Source of the DNA: Candidatus Obscuribacterales bacterium
Lineage (GTDB): Bacteria; Cyanobacteriota; Vampirovibrionia; Obscuribacterales; Obscuribacteraceae
Length of the DNA: 64,000 nt
Assembly (NCBI GenBank): GCA_020050685.1
Contig: JAGVKG010000016.1
Span: forward strand, 62,001-126,000
Direction of reading: 5' to 3'
Each line of letters begins with the position of its first letter. Position 1 is the stretch's first letter. Positions 43,965 to 57,195 of the stretch are shown piece by piece. The notes under the pieces were generated by a model. That model worked only from the letters and a program-made list of their open reading frames with translations, did not search any database and had not been told where the DNA came from. The translations under genes and the position numbers were made by a program.

Positions 43965-45422
43965 ATGAATCGCATTATCGCGGCAACGCTTGCGCTCATC
44001 GCCAGTCTGGCTATTTTTCAGCAAACCGGCTTGGCAGAGGGTGACAACAAAGCGCCGGAAGGAATGACCCATGAGACAGTGGTCACTTTTAATGCGGGAC
44101 TAGCGGCTTACAAAGCAGAAAAGTATGAGGAAGCGCGGGACAAGTTTAAGGCAGTCTGTGATGCCTTTCCGGCTTGGGCGCCTGCCCATCGCATGTACGG
44201 CATGGCACTCGAACACACAGGCGACATCGAAGGCGCGCTGAGAGAAAAGCTGGTCTGCGAGTCCATGGAGCCAGGCAAGCCGGAAATAATGCTCTCTGTA
44301 GCTACAGCCTACCAAGCTGCAGGAAAGTTTGACGAAGCACTAGAAAAGTATCGCAAATACTTAGAACTTTATCCGGACAGCAAAGAGGCTCCCGCTGTCA
44401 AGGACAGCATGTTGCTGATTCAACGAGATCTTGGCACGGGCAAGAAGCCACGCAGCTCAAAAGGAAAAGACAATTACATCGATGAAATTGCCAGCAAGGG
44501 AGCATCGCGCTGGAGCGAATCACAAATGCCGCTATCTGTGTATATTAAAAGTGGCGAAGGCATAGCGCACTACCGCGACTCATTTGGCGATATTCTCAAG
44601 CAATCATTTGCCGCCTGGGCAGATGCATCAGAGGGAAGCATCTCATTTACTTTTACAGATAACGAAAAGAGAGCCGCAATTAGATGTTCTTGGGTGGACG
44701 ATCCCAAGGAACTCTCCAACTCCATGGAAGGCGGCGAAGCAATTCCGCAGCGAAATAACAAAGGTGAAATGGATAGGACCAGCATATTGATTCTCACTCG
44801 AGGATCAAGCGATGGCACAGAACCTACTGATGCTCACATTCGGCAAGTATGCTTGCACGAAATCGGGCACGCTCTAGGGCTTTGCGGGCATAGCTCTCAA
44901 CCAGGAGATGTAATGTTTGCTGTAGCCGCAGCAAAGCCGCATGATCAATTGTCTGAACGAGACAAGAAAACTATTTGCATGTTGTACGAAGCATCAAAAG
45001 GTTATATCCGCAGGCACCAAGTGAAATTTTCAGATCCAACTTCTCCCGAGGAGACAAGTCCCAGGAGCATGACAATCAGGCTCAACAGTCAAGGGCTAAA
45101 AGCTTCAGAGGAACACGATTACATCAAGGCAATCGAATTATTTCAAGAAGGCTTGAAGATTGATCCCAAGGATGAGACGCTCTATATCAATATGGGCGGT
45201 GCTTATGCCAAGCTCGCACAACAAGCGCTAAAGAAAAATCATTTGGTGCAAGGCGAAAAATATCTCAATTGGGCAGTGGATTGCATGGTCAAAGGCGGAA
45301 AAGAAAAATACGCCGCAGACTTTTGTAAAACCCTGATTCAAATTGCCAAAGCGAATCAAGATGGAACCGCCCTGGAAAAATACGAGAAAATGAAAACGGA
45401 ATTTGAAGCGGTAAAAAATTGA
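43965..45422 (+). CDS. Secreted TPR-flanked matrixin-like zinc metalloprotease
   Basis: 485 residues. A signal peptide, N-terminal TPRs (residues 35-140), a metzincin domain, then C-terminal TPRs (about 375-445). The zinc site is H298-E-I-G-H302-A-L-G-L-C-G-H309, a HExxHxxG motif in which the third His is one residue further than in classical matrixins, followed by the Met-turn PGDVMFA. Presumably a secreted endopeptidase. GAAGGA lies just before the ATG, and a palindrome lies upstream. Confidence 0.85.
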   Translation: MNRIIAATLALIASLAIFQQTGLAEGDNKAPEGMTHETVVTFNAGLAAYKAEKYEEARDKFKAVCDAFPAWAPAHRMYGMALEHTGDIEGALREKLVCESMEPGKPEIMLSVATAYQAAGKFDEALEKYRKYLELYPDSKEAPAVKDSMLLIQRDLGTGKKPRSSKGKDNYIDEIASKGASRWSESQMPLSVYIKSGEGIAHYRDSFGDILKQSFAAWADASEGSISFTFTDNEKRAAIRCSWVDDPKELSNSMEGGEAIPQRNNKGEMDRTSILILTRGSSDGTEPTDAHIRQVCLHEIGHALGLCGHSSQPGDVMFAVAAAKPHDQLSERDKKTICMLYEASKGYIRRHQVKFSDPTSPEETSPRSMTIRLNSQGLKASEEHDYIKAIELFQEGLKIDPKDETLYINMGGAYAKLAQQALKKNHLVQGEKYLNWAVDCMVKGGKEKYAADFCKTLIQIAKANQDGTALEKYEKMKTEFEAVKN

Positions 45423-45488: not shown

Positions 45489-46841
45489 TCACTTTCTCCT
45501 GCGTCGTCGGGGAAGCATGCTCTCATAAAGAGTACTCAAGTCCGCTTCGCGATCAAAGTACTTCTCCCAGGAATTTTCAATTTGTACACGCCTTGTTTCG
45601 GGATCATAGGAAGCAATGGAAATTGCATGTCTCTCTCGCCCAGTGGCCACAATTGGCTTCGCATCCTTGATCAATTCGGAGCCTATTTTAATTGATCCCA
45701 TTAGTGGCATATTCTTTTCATTCTGCATTTTTGTTAGCAGATCATGTAATTCACTTTCTGTGTCATATTCCAAAAGAGTCTTTCCTCTGCCATGCTCTTT
45801 GTGTGAAAGAACAAAATCGGATTTGGTACTACCGAGCAAATTGGCGTATAAGGAAGAGACTGCCGCCAATGGTATTTCGCCAGCGCCTTCTTGGCCGGAT
45901 CCAATTTCCGAAAGTGGAACAAGGGTTGCTTTATCTTTGGCTGTCTTCACCAAATGATCACCTAGATCTGGATCTTGAACATATCTCAAGGAGCCGCGCG
46001 CCACTCGTTCGGGAAACATACCGGTAACCGATTGTCCAAACAAATCGTGCGTGCCATATTCGATCACTTCCTTGGCGCTCTGCCAGTAGCTATTGATGGC
46101 TGCCAATTGAAATAATTGACTTGTATACGATCGATGCCAATCATTGGGAGGCCAAGATCTGGCATCTCGGTCCCTCTTAATGCTCAAATCATCTAATACG
46201 ATTTGCTGCCCACTTGCCAGCATTGTTCTGCCAGTAGTAGCCACATCCACCACAACTTTGACAGCCGCTGCAGGATCGCGCACCAGAGCTCGATGCTGAA
46301 CATTAGCAGTTAAGCAGGTTGGAGAATCACCTTGCGTCACTTGTCCAGGTTGAGCTACCAGCCTCAAGATATCAAATGCCAGCCGCTGCCGTTCCATTTC
46401 ACCAAGCATTTGATTATCAGTATCTTCTAATAGACGGGATACATGATGATAACAATGGGCCAACTCACTGCTGCTTAGCCCTCGATCATTCATGTTCTTT
46501 TTAACGCCAGCCTGATCAGGAAAGACAGAGCCTACAGGCAGTTTCAAAAGCCTGAACAATCTATTTTCTTGCAGCTCCAGATTGCTTTCTTCTGCGGAAT
46601 AGGTTTTATCTGGGCGATTAACAACTTTGTCTTTGTTGTGATTGACAAAATCATAAGAAACAGTAGCGACTTCCCCAAATTGTCCCAATTGAACCGAAAA
46701 GGCGGGATAGTCCTTGATCGCCTTTTCCTTAGACTTACCAGACTGTTCCGGCTGAGCTAAAGCAACCAAAGAAAGCTCAGGATTTGCCTGATTCTTTCCA
46801 GCCGGTTGGGGTTTCTCAAACCTATCGTCTTCTTTGACCAT
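45489..46841 (-). CDS. Putative papain/calpain-like cysteine protease
   Basis: Not a named family, but it carries a catalytic set like that of papain-fold peptidases. In the 450-residue form starting at ATG 46841 these are Q170 and C176 (QGDSPTCLTAN; the 6-residue Gln-to-Cys gap matches papain Q19/C25), H405 in RERHAISIASY and N423 in VQIENSW. The His-to-Asn gap is 18 residues (16 in papain). The N-terminus is Glu/Gln/Lys-rich. A 22-residue longer form from 46907 would add a hydrophobic segment (MILWAAAFVW). The C-terminus ends in RRRRRK. Probably co-transcribed with the hydrolase upstream. Confidence 0.6.
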   Translation of the reverse strand: MVKEDDRFEKPQPAGKNQANPELSLVALAQPEQSGKSKEKAIKDYPAFSVQLGQFGEVATVSYDFVNHNKDKVVNRPDKTYSAEESNLELQENRLFRLLKLPVGSVFPDQAGVKKNMNDRGLSSSELAHCYHHVSRLLEDTDNQMLGEMERQRLAFDILRLVAQPGQVTQGDSPTCLTANVQHRALVRDPAAAVKVVVDVATTGRTMLASGQQIVLDDLSIKRDRDARSWPPNDWHRSYTSQLFQLAAINSYWQSAKEVIEYGTHDLFGQSVTGMFPERVARGSLRYVQDPDLGDHLVKTAKDKATLVPLSEIGSGQEGAGEIPLAAVSSLYANLLGSTKSDFVLSHKEHGRGKTLLEYDTESELHDLLTKMQNEKNMPLMGSIKIGSELIKDAKPIVATGRERHAISIASYDPETRRVQIENSWEKYFDREADLSTLYESMLPRRRRRK

Positions 46842-46940
46842 TGTTTTCCCAATCTTCCAAACAAATGCAGCCGCCCACAAAATCATATTCCATGACAGCA
46901 GGGTCATCTAAACCTGGACTGTAGATTTCGAATTGGAACT

Positions 46941-48203
46941 TTACTTGTTCAACTTCATCGAAACCGGCGCCCCATGAGAGGCAGCGGATGTTTTTACGAC
47001 TTTTAAACAAGTGGCGCTATCATCGGATACAGGCACCTTCAAATCATTGTGCCAGCTCTCGTAACGTGTATAAACGTTTCCTTTGTGCGCTTCGCCTTTC
47101 ACCAATTCATACCCTTCAGGTGGTTTGCCAGAATTACTCATGCTTGCCACCAAAGAATATGGAAAGTGGTGCCCAACCCAGTGACGATCCAATTTGGTGA
47201 AATCTATCTTTAGGGCCGGCTGTTTGACGGGCTGCGCGCCTGTATCATCAATCGTCACTTCCTCAGAAACATCTTTCTTGAACATATTCAATACGGCTCC
47301 CGCATCTTCACCTAAGCGATAGTAGCCACCGTAAACCATTTGCGTAAAGGAAAGCACTTTATCTCTCTCGGAGAAATAAAGGCGAATCGCCACACCATCA
47401 TTTTGAAAGTGCATTACATCGTGTTGAAATACTTCTGCATCAATGTCGGGCGAAACTAAGGCAACGTCAGAGACTAAGTGTGTGCCGGAAAGCACTGGCA
47501 GGCCGCGAGCTAAAACGCGATTGCCCATGCTGTGTGCCACTAGCGTGATGCGAACAGGATTTTGCGCGGCAAAAGCTTCCATATCTTTCCAGAACATATC
47601 AAAGTGTTGTTGTGTCCACTCGCAGTTACCTTCATCTACGTGATACTTCTTGAGCTTGCCAATTGATGGCCAGGAATAAAGCACCATCGGACACTTCTTC
47701 TGATAAGCCAGCATCGCTGCGTCGAGCGCGGCATCATCAAATGGGTCAGCAGCACCGTGAACAAAAATACAAATCTGATTTGATCCGTTGCGCTCCATTG
47801 CTTGTTTCAAATTAGCAAAAAATTCTGCCTTATTTTTTTTTGGATCGCCAGTTTTGATCTTTTCAATTTCTGGTGCCTTATTGGCCGTGCTCTCTTTCCA
47901 ATCCAGCTTTTTCTCTGTGCCCAGGCTTGTCAGATCGCTATCCGCCTCGACAGTTATTTTGGCAGTGCCATAATTCATTAGGTGTTTACAATTGACAATG
48001 TACTTTCTGATACCAGAAAAACCAGACGAAGTCTCGGCGCGATCTGTGAGATACAAGACCGGAATCTGCACATAATGCTTTTCCATTTTCGTGCGCATTT
48101 TTGAAACTGCCGATTTAATCGGCCTTTCTGACGCACTGGCAATTTGCACGGCAATTGCTGCCAGCAAAAACGAAAGGAGAAGTATCCGGCTAAGCTTCAA
48201 CAT
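46941..48203 (-). CDS. Secreted alpha/beta hydrolase (DUF900-like)
   Basis: A signal peptide (MLKLSRILLLSFLLAAIAVQIAS) precedes a hydrolase with the oxyanion loop CIFVHGAADP, the nucleophile elbow TLVAHSMGNRV (Ser) and downstream FSERDKVL (likely acid region). YFSERDKV and LVSPDIDAEVF match esterase/lipase-type DUF900. ATG 48203 has an AGGTG site; the longer frame from 48308 lacks a signal peptide. It precedes the papain-like gene by about 100 bases and probably shares its operon. Confidence 0.85.
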   Translation of the reverse strand: MLKLSRILLLSFLLAAIAVQIASASERPIKSAVSKMRTKMEKHYVQIPVLYLTDRAETSSGFSGIRKYIVNCKHLMNYGTAKITVEADSDLTSLGTEKKLDWKESTANKAPEIEKIKTGDPKKNKAEFFANLKQAMERNGSNQICIFVHGAADPFDDAALDAAMLAYQKKCPMVLYSWPSIGKLKKYHVDEGNCEWTQQHFDMFWKDMEAFAAQNPVRITLVAHSMGNRVLARGLPVLSGTHLVSDVALVSPDIDAEVFQHDVMHFQNDGVAIRLYFSERDKVLSFTQMVYGGYYRLGEDAGAVLNMFKKDVSEEVTIDDTGAQPVKQPALKIDFTKLDRHWVGHHFPYSLVASMSNSGKPPEGYELVKGEAHKGNVYTRYESWHNDLKVPVSDDSATCLKVVKTSAASHGAPVSMKLNK

Positions 48204-48365
48204 AAATCTGACACCTATTTTTAACCAACAGCAGCAACCTATAACAGTACTCGCGACGGCAAATATTGCCCAATCATTGCTCGCTTGACAACGGGTCAAG
48301 TTGAGCAAGATTGTACTCGATTCAGCCAGTCTAAAGCGATTAGGGCAAAATCATTGAATCAGTCT

Positions 48366-48980: not shown

Positions 48981-49088
48981 GTATTATGGCTCCTTGGGTT
49001 ATACGTCAGATAGAACATTGTGAATATAGCCTTGTTGAATATTCCGTATATGCATTTACGTATGCGAAAGGTATTGAGAATCCACGAA

Positions 49089-50042
49089 ATGAATTGTCGC
49101 ATTCTTTCGATCGCAGTAATTCTCGCCACTTCAATTAATTCTCTGTCTCTGCCAATTCAAGCTGTTACTAGTAGTCCGAATGATGTTTTTCTCGACATCA
49201 TGATGACTCCGGAACGCAACAAAGAGGCAGAAGCGCAAGGCCAACTGCGTGCCGATGCGCAAGAGGCAGCCGAGATTTTAAATATTGCACCCTTAATTGA
49301 AAAACTTAGGCGGGAAAAATACAAAAAAGAGTCTGAAGCAACCATTCATTCGAAGGCTGTCCACAACACAAGACTTTTGTGCTTGTGGAAAATCATGATT
49401 GGCATGCAAGAAGTGCGGAAAGTTGTCGCCAATATTAATTACGATATGGCTAGATCGGAAGTTGCACTCGATACGCTAACACGCAAAAAGAACATGACTA
49501 CAAACTTGCTCAATGCGGCAAACTTCTTGCAGTTTAGTGTATCGGGAGTTGTGAGAAATTCCCTGGCGCTGAACCGCCTTTACACGGTCGACAACATAAT
49601 GTCGATAAACGAGTTTGGTCTCGGCACGATTATTCCCAGCGTAGGTTTGGTGCTACCCTCGCTTTTAAGTCGCAAAGTAGTTGCGCATCCAAATATGCTG
49701 GCTCATGTACTCAACCCATCTTATCGTCCTGCCGATGCAGATGTGAGCTATCTTTGGAAATTCATGCATTCAAAAGTTCCTGGGCATTGCATTTTAGACC
49801 CAGAGCATAAATATACCCGACGTGAATTGCTGATTAAACATTGGGAGAAATTTGCCGATTTGGATTGCAAAGACGAGAATCGCTTGAAGCAATTGACCGC
49901 GCTGCCTCTCGGAAATGAAAGCGTTACTGAAAGTATTCGAATTATCACACAAAGACTTGATTTACTCGCTGATATGAGAATTCATATCGAAGAATTTGAC
50001 GGTTCACTCTACGAACTTTATAAGGCGATATCATCAGATTGA
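49089..50042 (+). CDS. Secreted lineage-specific protein, tandem paralogue 1
   Basis: About 317 residues from ATG 49089, where a signal peptide (MNCRILSIAVILATSINS) begins; the frame is open from GTG 49020. Middle hydrophobic segment (NEFGLGTIIPSVGLVLPSLL) and helices elsewhere. Shares order and motifs with the next gene: ...AAEILNIAPLIEKL, ...NLLNAANFLQF, and a C-terminal RI..QR/TR-LLAD. No family recognised. Confidence 0.65.
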   Translation: MNCRILSIAVILATSINSLSLPIQAVTSSPNDVFLDIMMTPERNKEAEAQGQLRADAQEAAEILNIAPLIEKLRREKYKKESEATIHSKAVHNTRLLCLWKIMIGMQEVRKVVANINYDMARSEVALDTLTRKKNMTTNLLNAANFLQFSVSGVVRNSLALNRLYTVDNIMSINEFGLGTIIPSVGLVLPSLLSRKVVAHPNMLAHVLNPSYRPADADVSYLWKFMHSKVPGHCILDPEHKYTRRELLIKHWEKFADLDCKDENRLKQLTALPLGNESVTESIRIITQRLDLLADMRIHIEEFDGSLYELYKAISSD

Positions 50043-50080
50043 TTTGTTGGGAATAGAAATTGCTGAAAAAAAATCGAGAC

Positions 50081-51016
50081 ATGATAAAAATGACGAGAGC
50101 ACTACTGGTGGTGCTGGTTATTTTTGTTCAGGCGTTTTATCCCACAAACGTAATGGCAGAAGCAAGCGATGTCCCCCAAACGTTTGCCGGACGATATATT
50201 GCCGCAGCAAACAATCCATCTTCTCCCAGTGGTCTCACGCCTGCAGCCCGAGAGGCAGCTTCATTGCTTGGCATTCTTCCCAAGGTAGAACGTTTAATTC
50301 AAATCAGAAATTCGAAAACAGATCCGGATTCTGTACCCACTGATGAAGAAATGGATTTAAAAGTCGACGTTCTGGACAAAGTCTTGGGCGCTTCCCTAGA
50401 AGTGCGCATGATAACTGACAGAATTGACCGCGAGCTTACCTGGTCATTTGCCATTATGAACATGTTGCAAAGCAAGCGGCAAAGAAACCTCAACATTTTG
50501 TTTACAGCAAACTTTTTGGAAGCCGGCATTCTGGGAGTAATCGCCGGCGGCTATTTTTTGAAGAAGCAAGATCAAACTGGCATTGAAATTTTGCTGGTCT
50601 CAGCCAGTATAGGTTTGGGGCTAACGGCACTGTCAATCATGGGCAGTCGAAGCGGCAAAAGAAAAATTGATGGCAAAACCACCATTTTAGCTGATGTCTT
50701 TCACTTACCTCAACCTGAGCCAGAACATTCTTTTGGACTAATCACACGATTTCTCAATTCCCCGCAGCCGGATTCAAGCGATAACAAAACACGCATAGAA
50801 ATACTGGTTGATAATTGGAAGGAACACCGCTTCTTGCGCAAGATTGACGAACCAAACCTGGTGCGACTTGCTTCCGCCCAACCAGAGGCCCGTAAGATGA
50901 AAGAAAATATCGGGCTGATTTCCACCCGCATTCACATGCTTTCTGATACGCAATTATCAGTTGAGCAATTGGACATTGGACTCTTGGAACTTTTGCGAGC
51001 CACTAAACTAGACTAA
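50081..51016 (+). CDS. Secreted lineage-specific protein, tandem paralogue 2
   Basis: About 311 residues from ATG 50081. Signal peptide (MIKMTRALLVVLVIFVQAFYP). Homologous to the preceding gene: AAREAASLLGILPKVERLI, NLNILFTANFLEAGILG, LLVSASIGLGLTALSI, ISTRIHMLSDTQLSVEQLD. One or two membrane segments near the middle. A tandem duplication with divergence is likely. Function unknown. Confidence 0.65.
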   Translation: MIKMTRALLVVLVIFVQAFYPTNVMAEASDVPQTFAGRYIAAANNPSSPSGLTPAAREAASLLGILPKVERLIQIRNSKTDPDSVPTDEEMDLKVDVLDKVLGASLEVRMITDRIDRELTWSFAIMNMLQSKRQRNLNILFTANFLEAGILGVIAGGYFLKKQDQTGIEILLVSASIGLGLTALSIMGSRSGKRKIDGKTTILADVFHLPQPEPEHSFGLITRFLNSPQPDSSDNKTRIEILVDNWKEHRFLRKIDEPNLVRLASAQPEARKMKENIGLISTRIHMLSDTQLSVEQLDIGLLELLRATKLD

Positions 51017-54048: not shown

Positions 54049-57000
54049 ATGAGAATTTCTGCCAGTCGTTTGATTGTCGTGTTCGCAGCCCTATCTATTA
54101 TTGGCTCTCCTATAAATGTAGGCATCGGCGATATTTGTTTGCCAGCCAATGCAAAAGATCCAACAGCGGATTCTCTTTACGATCTAGCTAAGAGTAATTT
54201 CGATGGTGGCAATCTAGCAGAAGCCGAATCCTTGATGCGTCAATCATTGCAATTGGAAAAGACGATGAAGCGTCCGCAAGCACTGGTTCGTACAGAGATT
54301 GCTCTGGCAACAATTCTGGTATCCGCTCATCGCGCAGCAGAAGCAAAACAACTTTTCGAAGAAGCACTGGCATTTGCCAATGAACATAAGCTGAGGCAAG
54401 AGACCATTTCAATTGCGATTAACTTGGGCGCAATTGCCATGCAAGACGGTGCCTATGACCAAGCGCGCAAACTATATCAACAAGCACTTGCCGATTCGCA
54501 AGCCCAAGGACTTGCCGCTGCCCAGGCTAATGCGCTGATCAATCTTTCTGTTTTAGAAAGAGCACAAAACCATTTGCAAGAAGCAATGTCTTGTTTGAAT
54601 CAAGCACTGCCGCTGCTCGGCAGCGAAGGCAGTGAAACTCAAGTCGGTAATTTACTGATGGAAATTGCTCGCGTGCAAGCCGATTTAGGCAAGCATGATG
54701 AAGCAATTGCCAGCTATCACAAAGCCAAAGAACACTTCGCCCAAGATTTTGATAATGTCTCGCAGGGCAAAGCCTTGATGGCAGCCGGTCAAGTACTTCT
54801 CACCCAAGAAAAATATGCAGATGCCACCAGAGAATTAACTGATGCAATCAAAATTCTCACTCCCGAAGATGGCAGCACTCCAAGTAACACGCTTGCCGAT
54901 TGTCTAATAAGTTTGGCTGCAGTTCACACAGCCGAAAAACAATTTGCTCAATCAGAATCGACACTCAAACAAGCTCTGACAATTGCGGACACTCTGAAGA
55001 GCGCGGACCGAAAACGGGCAGCGCTTTCCGAACTGGGCTATTTAATGCTCGTGCGCGGATTGACTGAACAGGCACTGGAAAAATATTTACAAGCCTACGA
55101 TTTGTTACCCAAGACAAGTCAGAAGCCAAGCAAAACGCGCGCCGTATTACTCATCGATCTTGCCATGTGTTACAAAGCACTCGGTCAAATGGATCAAGCA
55201 ATCAAGAGCTACGAACAAGCCCTGGCAATCCTTGCTTCCGTAGGCGATGTACAAGCACAAGCGCTTGCCGCCAACAATTTAGCGGTTGCGTATTTAGATA
55301 GCGGCAAGACGAAAGATTTTGATCGTCTCTGGCAACAAGCTTCAACATTATTTGCTCAAGCCCACGATAAAAAAGGGCAAGCAATCATGTCCTACAATCT
55401 TGGGCAATCGAAGCTTGTGGGCAAGAAATTTGCCGAAGCGGTTGGCGACTATCAACAAGCATTGACTCTCATGCGTGCCGCTCGTGATGCCAATGGCATC
55501 GGTCAATCGTTGCGTGGACTAGGACTAGCGTATCTATTGAATGCTCAGGTGAATGCGCAAGGCAATCAAGCACCAGTAAATCAAGCAGAGTCGACACAAT
55601 TGCACCAAGCTATTGATTGCTATCAAGAAGCGCTCAAACTTGCTGAACAAAAACAATCTGGCGAAGCAAATACCGAAGCCAAATGGGATTGCCATTTGGG
55701 ATTAGGCAAGGCTTACAAAAAACTGGGTGACAAAGAGCAAGCACTCGATCATTTGCGCCAAGCTGTCAGCATAGGCGAACAAGAACGCAGCCAGCTTTCG
55801 CGCGACACGTTCAAGACTTTCAATTTGGACATGCGTCAAGATTGCTTTTATGAGCTTGTTGATTTATTGATTCAACAAAACCAAGCAGAAGAGGCACTGG
55901 AAATTGCCGAAAGAAGTCGAGCCAGAGCTTTTGCTGATTTGCTGGCTGCACGCGAACAGACTATTTCGCACAAGCTAGATAACCCGGGCTCAAGTACATT
56001 GAATTCCGCGCCGCTGCCTGCACTCTCTTCCTTCCAACAAGCGCAGGATTTTTCCGTAGAAAGCAATGTTGTTTCCCAAACACTCTCGGCGAGTCAACTC
56101 AAGCAGCTTGCCCAAGAGCATGGTGCCACCATTTTGGAATACTACGCTTTGCCAGAAAAATTGCTTGTCTGGCTGATTGACTCCAATGGCACTGTTCATC
56201 TTTTGCCGGCTCAAAACATTTCCCTATCCAAACTTACAGCAAAAACTGCCGAACTATATAACGTTGTCATCGCTCAGCCAAAAACCCTTGAGGAAATCAA
56301 ACAATCAGGCACATTGCGCCAAGCCAAGCTCAAGGAAATGTACAAGTTGCTGATTAGCCCAGCCGAGCCGCTTTTGCAAACCACAAAGAAAGTGGTAATC
56401 GTTCCGCATGGTCCGCTGTTTCTTGTACCGTTTGCAGCACTGATGAATGCTCAGGGCAAATTCCTGGTTGAGTCATATACCCTTACTTTCACACCAGCAA
56501 TTTCCGTTTTGCAATCAACTGCTAAATTGGCAAACGCTGCATTGCAAGGCAATAGTTTGTTAGCATTCGGCAATCCCAAGACCGAAATATTTGCCGAGCT
56601 TGGTTCGCTTCCATATGCGGAAAAGGAAGTACAAAAGGCAGCTGAATTATTTGGCAAAACAAATACAACCATGGAGCTTGGCGAGCAAGCAAACAAATCT
56701 TCCTTCATCCAGTTTGCCCCGAAGACATCTGTGATTCACATGGCTTGCCACGGCATTATCAACGAAGAACACCCAACAATGTCCGGCTTGGTATTAGCCA
56801 AGAATGGCAAAGACAATGGCTTTTTGCCAGTCAAGGATATTCTCAATTTGCCACCACTTAAATCGCGCTTGGTAGTTCTTTCTGCCTGCCAGACTGGACG
56901 GGGAAAAATCACGGGCGATGGCGTAATTGGCTTATCGCGTGCCTTCATTGCGGCCGGCACACCATCTGTGATTGTCAGCCAATGGAATGTGGACGACGTG

Positions 57001-57195
57001 ATTGCTGAATATCAAATGGAAGCCTTTTACAAAACCCTATTAAGCGGCAAGAACAAAGCTGAGTCCTTGCGGGAAGCGCAAGTCAAAACCATCGCCTCAA
57101 TGGAAGGTACACAAGCAGATACCACATCGCCAACCTTCATCCGCGCCAACCCCCGCTACTGGGCAGCCTTCCAACTAATCGGCGAAGCACAATAA
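54049..57195 (+). CDS. Secreted TPR-CHAT protease-like protein
   Basis: 1048 residues: a signal peptide, about 14 TPRs (residues 30-620), a linker and a C-terminal CHAT domain (about 680-1045) of the caspase/separase clan. The dyad is visible as H901 in HMACHG and C947 in VVLSACQTGRGK, followed by VSQWNVDD. CHAT proteases are common in cyanobacteria and related filamentous or predatory bacteria. The TPRs probably recruit or gate substrate. Secretion makes it unusual: most known examples are cytoplasmic. Adjacent to the FecR-like gene. Confidence 0.9.
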   Translation: MRISASRLIVVFAALSIIGSPINVGIGDICLPANAKDPTADSLYDLAKSNFDGGNLAEAESLMRQSLQLEKTMKRPQALVRTEIALATILVSAHRAAEAKQLFEEALAFANEHKLRQETISIAINLGAIAMQDGAYDQARKLYQQALADSQAQGLAAAQANALINLSVLERAQNHLQEAMSCLNQALPLLGSEGSETQVGNLLMEIARVQADLGKHDEAIASYHKAKEHFAQDFDNVSQGKALMAAGQVLLTQEKYADATRELTDAIKILTPEDGSTPSNTLADCLISLAAVHTAEKQFAQSESTLKQALTIADTLKSADRKRAALSELGYLMLVRGLTEQALEKYLQAYDLLPKTSQKPSKTRAVLLIDLAMCYKALGQMDQAIKSYEQALAILASVGDVQAQALAANNLAVAYLDSGKTKDFDRLWQQASTLFAQAHDKKGQAIMSYNLGQSKLVGKKFAEAVGDYQQALTLMRAARDANGIGQSLRGLGLAYLLNAQVNAQGNQAPVNQAESTQLHQAIDCYQEALKLAEQKQSGEANTEAKWDCHLGLGKAYKKLGDKEQALDHLRQAVSIGEQERSQLSRDTFKTFNLDMRQDCFYELVDLLIQQNQAEEALEIAERSRARAFADLLAAREQTISHKLDNPGSSTLNSAPLPALSSFQQAQDFSVESNVVSQTLSASQLKQLAQEHGATILEYYALPEKLLVWLIDSNGTVHLLPAQNISLSKLTAKTAELYNVVIAQPKTLEEIKQSGTLRQAKLKEMYKLLISPAEPLLQTTKKVVIVPHGPLFLVPFAALMNAQGKFLVESYTLTFTPAISVLQSTAKLANAALQGNSLLAFGNPKTEIFAELGSLPYAEKEVQKAAELFGKTNTTMELGEQANKSSFIQFAPKTSVIHMACHGIINEEHPTMSGLVLAKNGKDNGFLPVKDILNLPPLKSRLVVLSACQTGRGKITGDGVIGLSRAFIAAGTPSVIVSQWNVDDVIAEYQMEAFYKTLLSGKNKAESLREAQVKTIASMEGTQADTTSPTFIRANPRYWAAFQLIGEAQ

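What the first reader, a model, noticed from the sequence alone, without database searches (positions are those of the whole stretch)
45489..46841. Unnamed protein with a complete papain-like catalytic set
Q170 and C176 are six residues apart, and H405 and N423 lie in RERHAISIASY and VQIENSW. This matches papain Gln/Cys/His/Asn order and spacing and recalls calpain (HAYSV, NPW). The rest of the chain is not a known protease. It follows a secreted hydrolase gene, so an effector or lysis role is possible in a lineage whose relatives include predators.
Basis: partly seen in the sequence, partly recalled or inferred. Interest (0 to 1): 0.65.

Follow-up and report, generated by a model that had tools for sequence, protein, structure and literature searches.

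The report
New papain-like enzyme family in Obscuribacterales
This gene encodes a diverged member of a large, previously unclassified family of papain-like cysteine peptidases found in every sampled genome of one non-photosynthetic cyanobacterial family, where many sister genes are followed by a small partner gene that the gene studied here lacks.

Summary
In detail: the ORF is real (minus strand, 45489-46841, 450 aa) and carries Q170, C176, H405 and N423. About 100 homologues at 18-31% identity keep the set: H 80/80, N 79/80. A confident AlphaFold model places the residues as in papain (C176 starts a helix; H405 and N423 sit on adjacent strands), the top PDB fold matches are mostly papain-like enzymes (none significant alone), and profile-profile comparison aligns the blocks with Peptidase_C1 (90%). 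No Pfam, NCBIfam or PDB sequence hit exists, so this is a new family in the papain-like superfamily: present in 50/50 genomes of the taxonomic family and 3/3 of a sister family, often many copies, essentially absent elsewhere in the class.

New here: about a third of relatives are followed, usually within 0-60 bp, by a co-inherited ~200-aa gene with a PsbP/Mog1 fold (like EagT6 and LpqN). The target lacks it, lacks a signal peptide and is the longest branch. Predation or lysis is not supported. Conflict effector with cognate partner, or intracellular regulated peptidase, are the leading roles; neither is shown.

The parts
45489..46841 (-). Papain-like cysteine peptidase homologue, 450 aa (stop 45491-45489; alternative upstream ATG at 46907 would add 22 aa)
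46611..46841 (-). N-terminal 77 residues, charged, predicted disordered, no signal peptide
   Evidence: (pLDDT<50 for residues 1-77)
45492..46610 (-). Folded papain-like domain, residues 78-450
   Evidence: 259 residues with pLDDT>=90, pTM 0.80
46332..46334 (-). Q170 codon, predicted oxyanion-hole glutamine (papain Gln19 equivalent)
46314..46316 (-). C176 codon, predicted nucleophile at N-cap of helix 176-188
45627..45629 (-). H405 codon, predicted general base on strand 404-413
45573..45575 (-). N423 codon, predicted third triad residue at end of strand 418-423 (N-S-W, as NSWG in papain)
46941..48308 (-). Upstream co-directional gene: DUF900 alpha/beta hydrolase with an apparent N-terminal signal segment; possible operon, linkage not conserved in the loci examined

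Best explanation
The gene encodes a catalytically complete papain-like cysteine peptidase. C176 is the nucleophile, H405 the base, N423 orients H405, and Q170 helps form the oxyanion hole. It is a solitary, fast-diverged paralogue of an Obscuribacterales-wide multi-copy family not covered by Pfam or NCBIfam. In the family at large the peptidase is typically made without a signal peptide and in about a third of cases with an adjacent downstream ~200-aa PsbP/Mog1-fold partner, most likely its cognate inhibitor (immunity-type) or chaperone; a minority appear Sec-exported and have no partner. Shown: conservation, gene pairing, co-inheritance. Shown by prediction only: fold of both proteins and active-site topology. 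Inferred: peptide-bond hydrolysis, and that the target acts in the cytoplasm on a protein substrate. As to role, I put a conflict/competition effector at about 0.4, an intracellular regulated or processing peptidase at about 0.4, and a papain-fold non-peptidase (amidase, transpeptidase) at about 0.15.
For: Invariant Q/C/H/N at 18-31% identity. Papain order and exact Q-x5-C spacing, with N-S-W after the His strand. AF2 topology. The leading PDB fold matches are mainly papain-like enzymes: GtgE (probability 0.98), phytochelatin synthase Alr0975 (about 0.9), AvrRpt2, C39-like domain, xylellain. hhalign to Peptidase_C1 90%, E 1.5e-6, matching His and Asn, with the second alignment matching Q-C; C39 50%; control family 0.5%. 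Cathepsin S is the second hit of the family profile in PDB, E 0.32. Sister sequences elsewhere in the phylum keep QG-x3-TC and, in the two clearest, H...N[PS]WG. Partner: 51 of 55 partner genes adjoin a family gene; mirror correlation 0.76, 0/2000 permutations; PsbP/LpqN/EagT6-like fold.
Against: No Foldseek match to the model reaches E<=0.001 and TM-scores are low. The target is the most diverged member (end branch 1.88), has no close orthologue, and selection on it could not be tested. Catalytic activity has not been shown for any family member.
Confidence: 0.75

Rival explanations
1. Conflict effector: the family are peptidase toxins delivered to or acting on competitors, with the PsbP-fold partner as cognate immunity protein or chaperone; the target is an orphan effector copy.
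For: Many copies per genome and tandem arrays; LysM or RHS-repeat N-termini in a subset (9 and 8 of 62); adjacent, faster-diverging, co-inherited partner; published precedent of papain-like toxins Cpe1/EvpQ/TsaP followed by 79-239 aa immunity genes (PMC12136450).
Against: No T6SS sheath or phage-type sheath gene in any of 50 family genomes; no delivery domain in the target; the target has no partner, and its genome has only one, beside another paralogue; RHS or LysM in a minority only.
Confidence: 0.4
2. Intracellular regulated peptidase: the family cleaves the cell's own proteins in signalling or processing, with the partner as regulator.
For: Most members, including the target, lack signal peptides; fusion with FHA and very large ORFs with GGDEF; presence in every genome of the taxonomic family.
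Against: Several members carry Sec signal segments; LysM domains suggest envelope contact; copy number (1 to 32) varies more than expected for housekeeping genes.
Confidence: 0.4
3. Papain-fold enzyme that is not a peptidase, for example a peptidoglycan amidase or a transpeptidase such as phytochelatin synthase.
For: Phytochelatin synthase is among the best fold matches; LysM domains in some relatives; papain-like families include amidases and transferases (PMC10318531).
Against: The C-H-N triad with Q at -6 and N-x-W is closest to C1 peptidases, not to the CHH amidases described in PMC10318531.
Confidence: 0.15
4. Chance resemblance: the residues are not a catalytic set.
Against: Conservation in about 100 diverse homologues and papain topology.
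Confidence: 0.02

Closest known systems
Peptidase_C1 (PF00112, papain/cathepsin, MEROPS C1)
   Same: Q-x5-C, H on a strand, N-x-W on the next strand; 90% profile-profile match over 53 columns
   Different: No HMMER hit; about 230 residues between Cys and His versus about 134 in papain (papain numbering from memory); extra N-terminal helical region; NQWG rather than NSWG as family consensus
Peptidase_C39_2 (PF13529)
   Same: 12 of 57 members match weakly (best E 0.0011); shared Q-x5-C block
   Different: 50% profile-profile match only; no Asn-x-Trp block
GtgE / phytochelatin synthase / AvrRpt2 (papain-like folds)
   Same: Predicted core topology; Foldseek probability up to 0.98 (AvrRpt2 only 0.28)
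   Different: No significant E-value; no sequence similarity detected
Cpe1/Cpi1 papain-like interbacterial toxin and immunity protein (PMC12136450)
   Same: Papain-like peptidase gene followed by a small diverging partner gene (family level only)
   Different: No T6SS sheath here and no CDI carrier seen; partner has a PsbP/Mog1 fold; target lacks a partner
Eag chaperones (DUF1795, EagT6)
   Same: Predicted partner fold, E 1.1e-3, probability 1.00
   Different: No DUF1795 hit; partner is longer; the lineage has no T6SS sheath gene; partner sits 3' of the enzyme gene

Membership tests
Papain-like cysteine peptidase superfamily (clan CA) | Cys nucleophile at the N-terminus of the central helix | tested here: met
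   C176 starts helix 176-188; invariant in homologues
Papain-like cysteine peptidase superfamily (clan CA) | His and Asn/Asp on the following core strands | tested here: met
   H405 in strand 404-413, N423 in strand 418-423; H 80/80, N 79/80
Papain-like cysteine peptidase superfamily (clan CA) | Triad residues in contact | not testable with these tools
   Model coordinates not released; only secondary structure and fold matches seen
Papain-like cysteine peptidase superfamily (clan CA) | Fold similarity to solved members | tested here: inconclusive
   Leading Foldseek hits mostly papain-like, but all E>0.1
Papain-like cysteine peptidase superfamily (clan CA) | Cysteine-dependent hydrolysis | not testable with these tools
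   Needs an assay
Peptidase_C1 (PF00112) | Match above the curated threshold | tested here: not met
   No hit for the target; not among the families listed for 57 members; own genome has no PF00112 match
Calpain (C2) | Match to the calpain profile | tested here: not met
   No Pfam hit of any kind
Polymorphic toxin / effector-immunity system | Adjacent small partner gene | tested here: not met
   Absent at the target; present beside one paralogue of the same genome and beside about a third of relatives
Polymorphic toxin / effector-immunity system | Delivery domain or known secretion route | tested here: not met
   Target has no Pfam domain; no T6SS sheath or phage sheath gene in 50 genomes; other routes not tested
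Polymorphic toxin / effector-immunity system | Toxicity neutralised by the partner | not testable with these tools
   Needs expression tests

The most novel reading that the evidence does not exclude
An uncultured bacterial order has evolved a large arsenal of papain-like peptidases, many paired with a dedicated PsbP/Mog1-fold inhibitor or chaperone, forming a peptidase-partner system unlike known T6SS or CDI pairs; the target is a copy freed from its partner.
Probability: 0.3. Interest if true: 0.7.

Novelty: new variant of a known kind. Interest (0 to 1): 0.5.

Why it matters
It adds an unclassified, strongly expanded family to the papain-like superfamily in a lineage (Obscuribacterales) whose biology is known almost only from metagenomes. 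The conserved pairing with a PsbP-fold protein gives a simple, testable hypothesis (inhibitor, immunity protein or chaperone) and a handle on hundreds of unannotated genes.

Tried and rejected
Predation or lysis role: family restricted to one order, essentially absent from the rest of the class. T6SS/Eag-type delivery: no sheath genes in 50 genomes. Phage or plasmid cargo: no homologues in viral contigs, phages or plasmids. Defence system: no PADLOC hit. Conserved hydrolase-peptidase operon: not seen in the loci examined. Calpain membership: no hit. Single-sequence PDB and Pfam searches gave nothing. Viral fold search gave nothing. The tree cannot place the target reliably, because its long branch meets another long branch. 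Kinase-like and histidine-kinase-like gene clusters near family loci were seen (identified from sequence by eye) but not tested against the genomic background.

Full report
Observation. The ORF lies on the minus strand at 45489-46841 and encodes 450 aa with Q170, C176, H405 and N423 as described. An in-frame ATG at 46907 would add 22 residues with a short hydrophobic stretch; it does not look like a classical signal peptide. Its full form, QG-x4-C with H and N-x-W at papain-like spacing, is not found in 20,000 shuffles or in 365 unrelated ORFs.

Homologues. No Pfam, NCBIfam or PDB sequence match exists. The same genome holds three more copies. In genomes of the same taxonomic family 46 of 50 have a match with the single sequence and 50 of 50 with a profile, plus 3 of 3 in a sister family, but only 2 marginal matches in the roughly 187 other genomes of the class. 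Named records are almost all Candidatus Obscuribacterales / Obscuribacter / Melainabacteria. Copy number reaches 32 by the single-sequence search. Q, C, H and N are essentially invariant. More distant sequences elsewhere in the phylum keep the QG-x3-TC block and, in the two clearest cases, H...N[PS]WG.

Fold. AlphaFold2 on 57 sequences gives pTM 0.80 with 259 residues at pLDDT 90 or more; C176 caps helix 176-188, H405 begins strand 404-413 and N423 ends strand 418-423. This is the papain arrangement (papain topology from general knowledge). Most of the leading PDB fold matches are papain-like enzymes, though none is significant alone. Profile-profile comparison to Peptidase_C1 sequences of the same phylum gives 90% (E 1.5e-6, one-profile search), aligning H405 and N423 with the C1 His and Asn; the second alignment pairs Q170-C176 with the C1 Q-C. 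C39 reaches 50%, a control family 0.5%. I conclude that it is a papain-like enzyme but not a member of C1, C2 or C39 by their profiles.

Partner gene. Scanning the neighbourhoods showed a ~200-aa family immediately 3' of many family genes. With a profile, 51 of 55 partner genes adjoin a family gene on the same strand, mostly -1 to +60 bp apart; about a third of family genes (34 of 104) have one. Distances of the paired proteins correlate (r 0.76, 0/2000 permutations), with the partner diverging faster (27% versus 38% mean identity). The predicted partner fold matches PsbP, CyanoP, LpqN, EagT6 and DcrB. Partners occur in 46 of 50 family genomes and 3 of 3 sister-family genomes and nowhere else in the class sample. 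The seven members with the clearest signal segments have no partner. The target has no partner: a convergent TPR/M10 gene ends at 45422. The only partner in its genome sits beside another paralogue.

Role. Some relatives carry LysM or RHS repeats, FHA, or lie in very large ORFs with GGDEF and RHS repeats. The lineage lacks T6SS and phage-type sheath genes. Papain-like toxins with adjacent immunity genes are known in other bacteria (Cpe1/Cpi1, PMC12136450), and the Eag chaperone literature cites the Mog1p/PsbP-like fold (PMC12881460). So a conflict effector with an inhibitor or chaperone, and an intracellular regulated peptidase, are both open. For the target itself, lacking signal, partner and accessory domain, the safe statement is: a diverged, catalytically complete papain-like peptidase, most likely cytoplasmic, substrate unknown.

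Limits. No model coordinates, no activity data, no close orthologue to test selection. The alignment for the larger set was partly gathered with a Q/C pattern. Neighbour statistics rest on loci from draft genomes. Signal peptides were called by hydrophobicity only. The absence from the predator's own order was not tested by name, since genomes in the class sample are unnamed.

Noticed in passing
L034:9606-10241 and about 50 further loci: A ~200-aa PsbP/Mog1-fold gene family almost always directly downstream of a papain-like family gene, unnamed in Pfam.
   Followed up: yes
L213/L214 (G002 contig C5), also L069, L074: Open reading frames of 5,680 to at least 11,820 aa holding the papain-like domain; those scanned also show RHS-repeat and GGDEF matches, one a methyltransferase match.
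   Followed up: partly
L210, L211, L212: Distant sister family elsewhere in the phylum with QG-x3-TC and, in two of three, H...NPWG or NSWG; one carries EF-hands. No Pfam name for the catalytic part.
   Followed up: partly
L032:1144-2610: A family member whose domain is split between two ORFs (an in-frame TAA was reported in this genome's match), likely a decayed copy.
   Followed up: no
43965-45422 (+): TPR repeats flanking a matrixin-like (Peptidase_M10) domain, convergent with the target gene.
   Followed up: no
54049-57195 (+): TPR protein with a C-terminal CHAT (caspase-like) domain.
   Followed up: no
49020-50042 and 50060-51016 (+): Two adjacent, similar-looking proteins (340 and 318 aa) without any Pfam match.
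   Followed up: no
L216:3146-4489: A subtilisin-like protein (by eye) with an apparent signal peptide, convergent with the own-genome paralogue L002.
   Followed up: no
L029:1489-4005: Papain-like domain fused to an FHA domain, with a partner gene downstream.
   Followed up: partly
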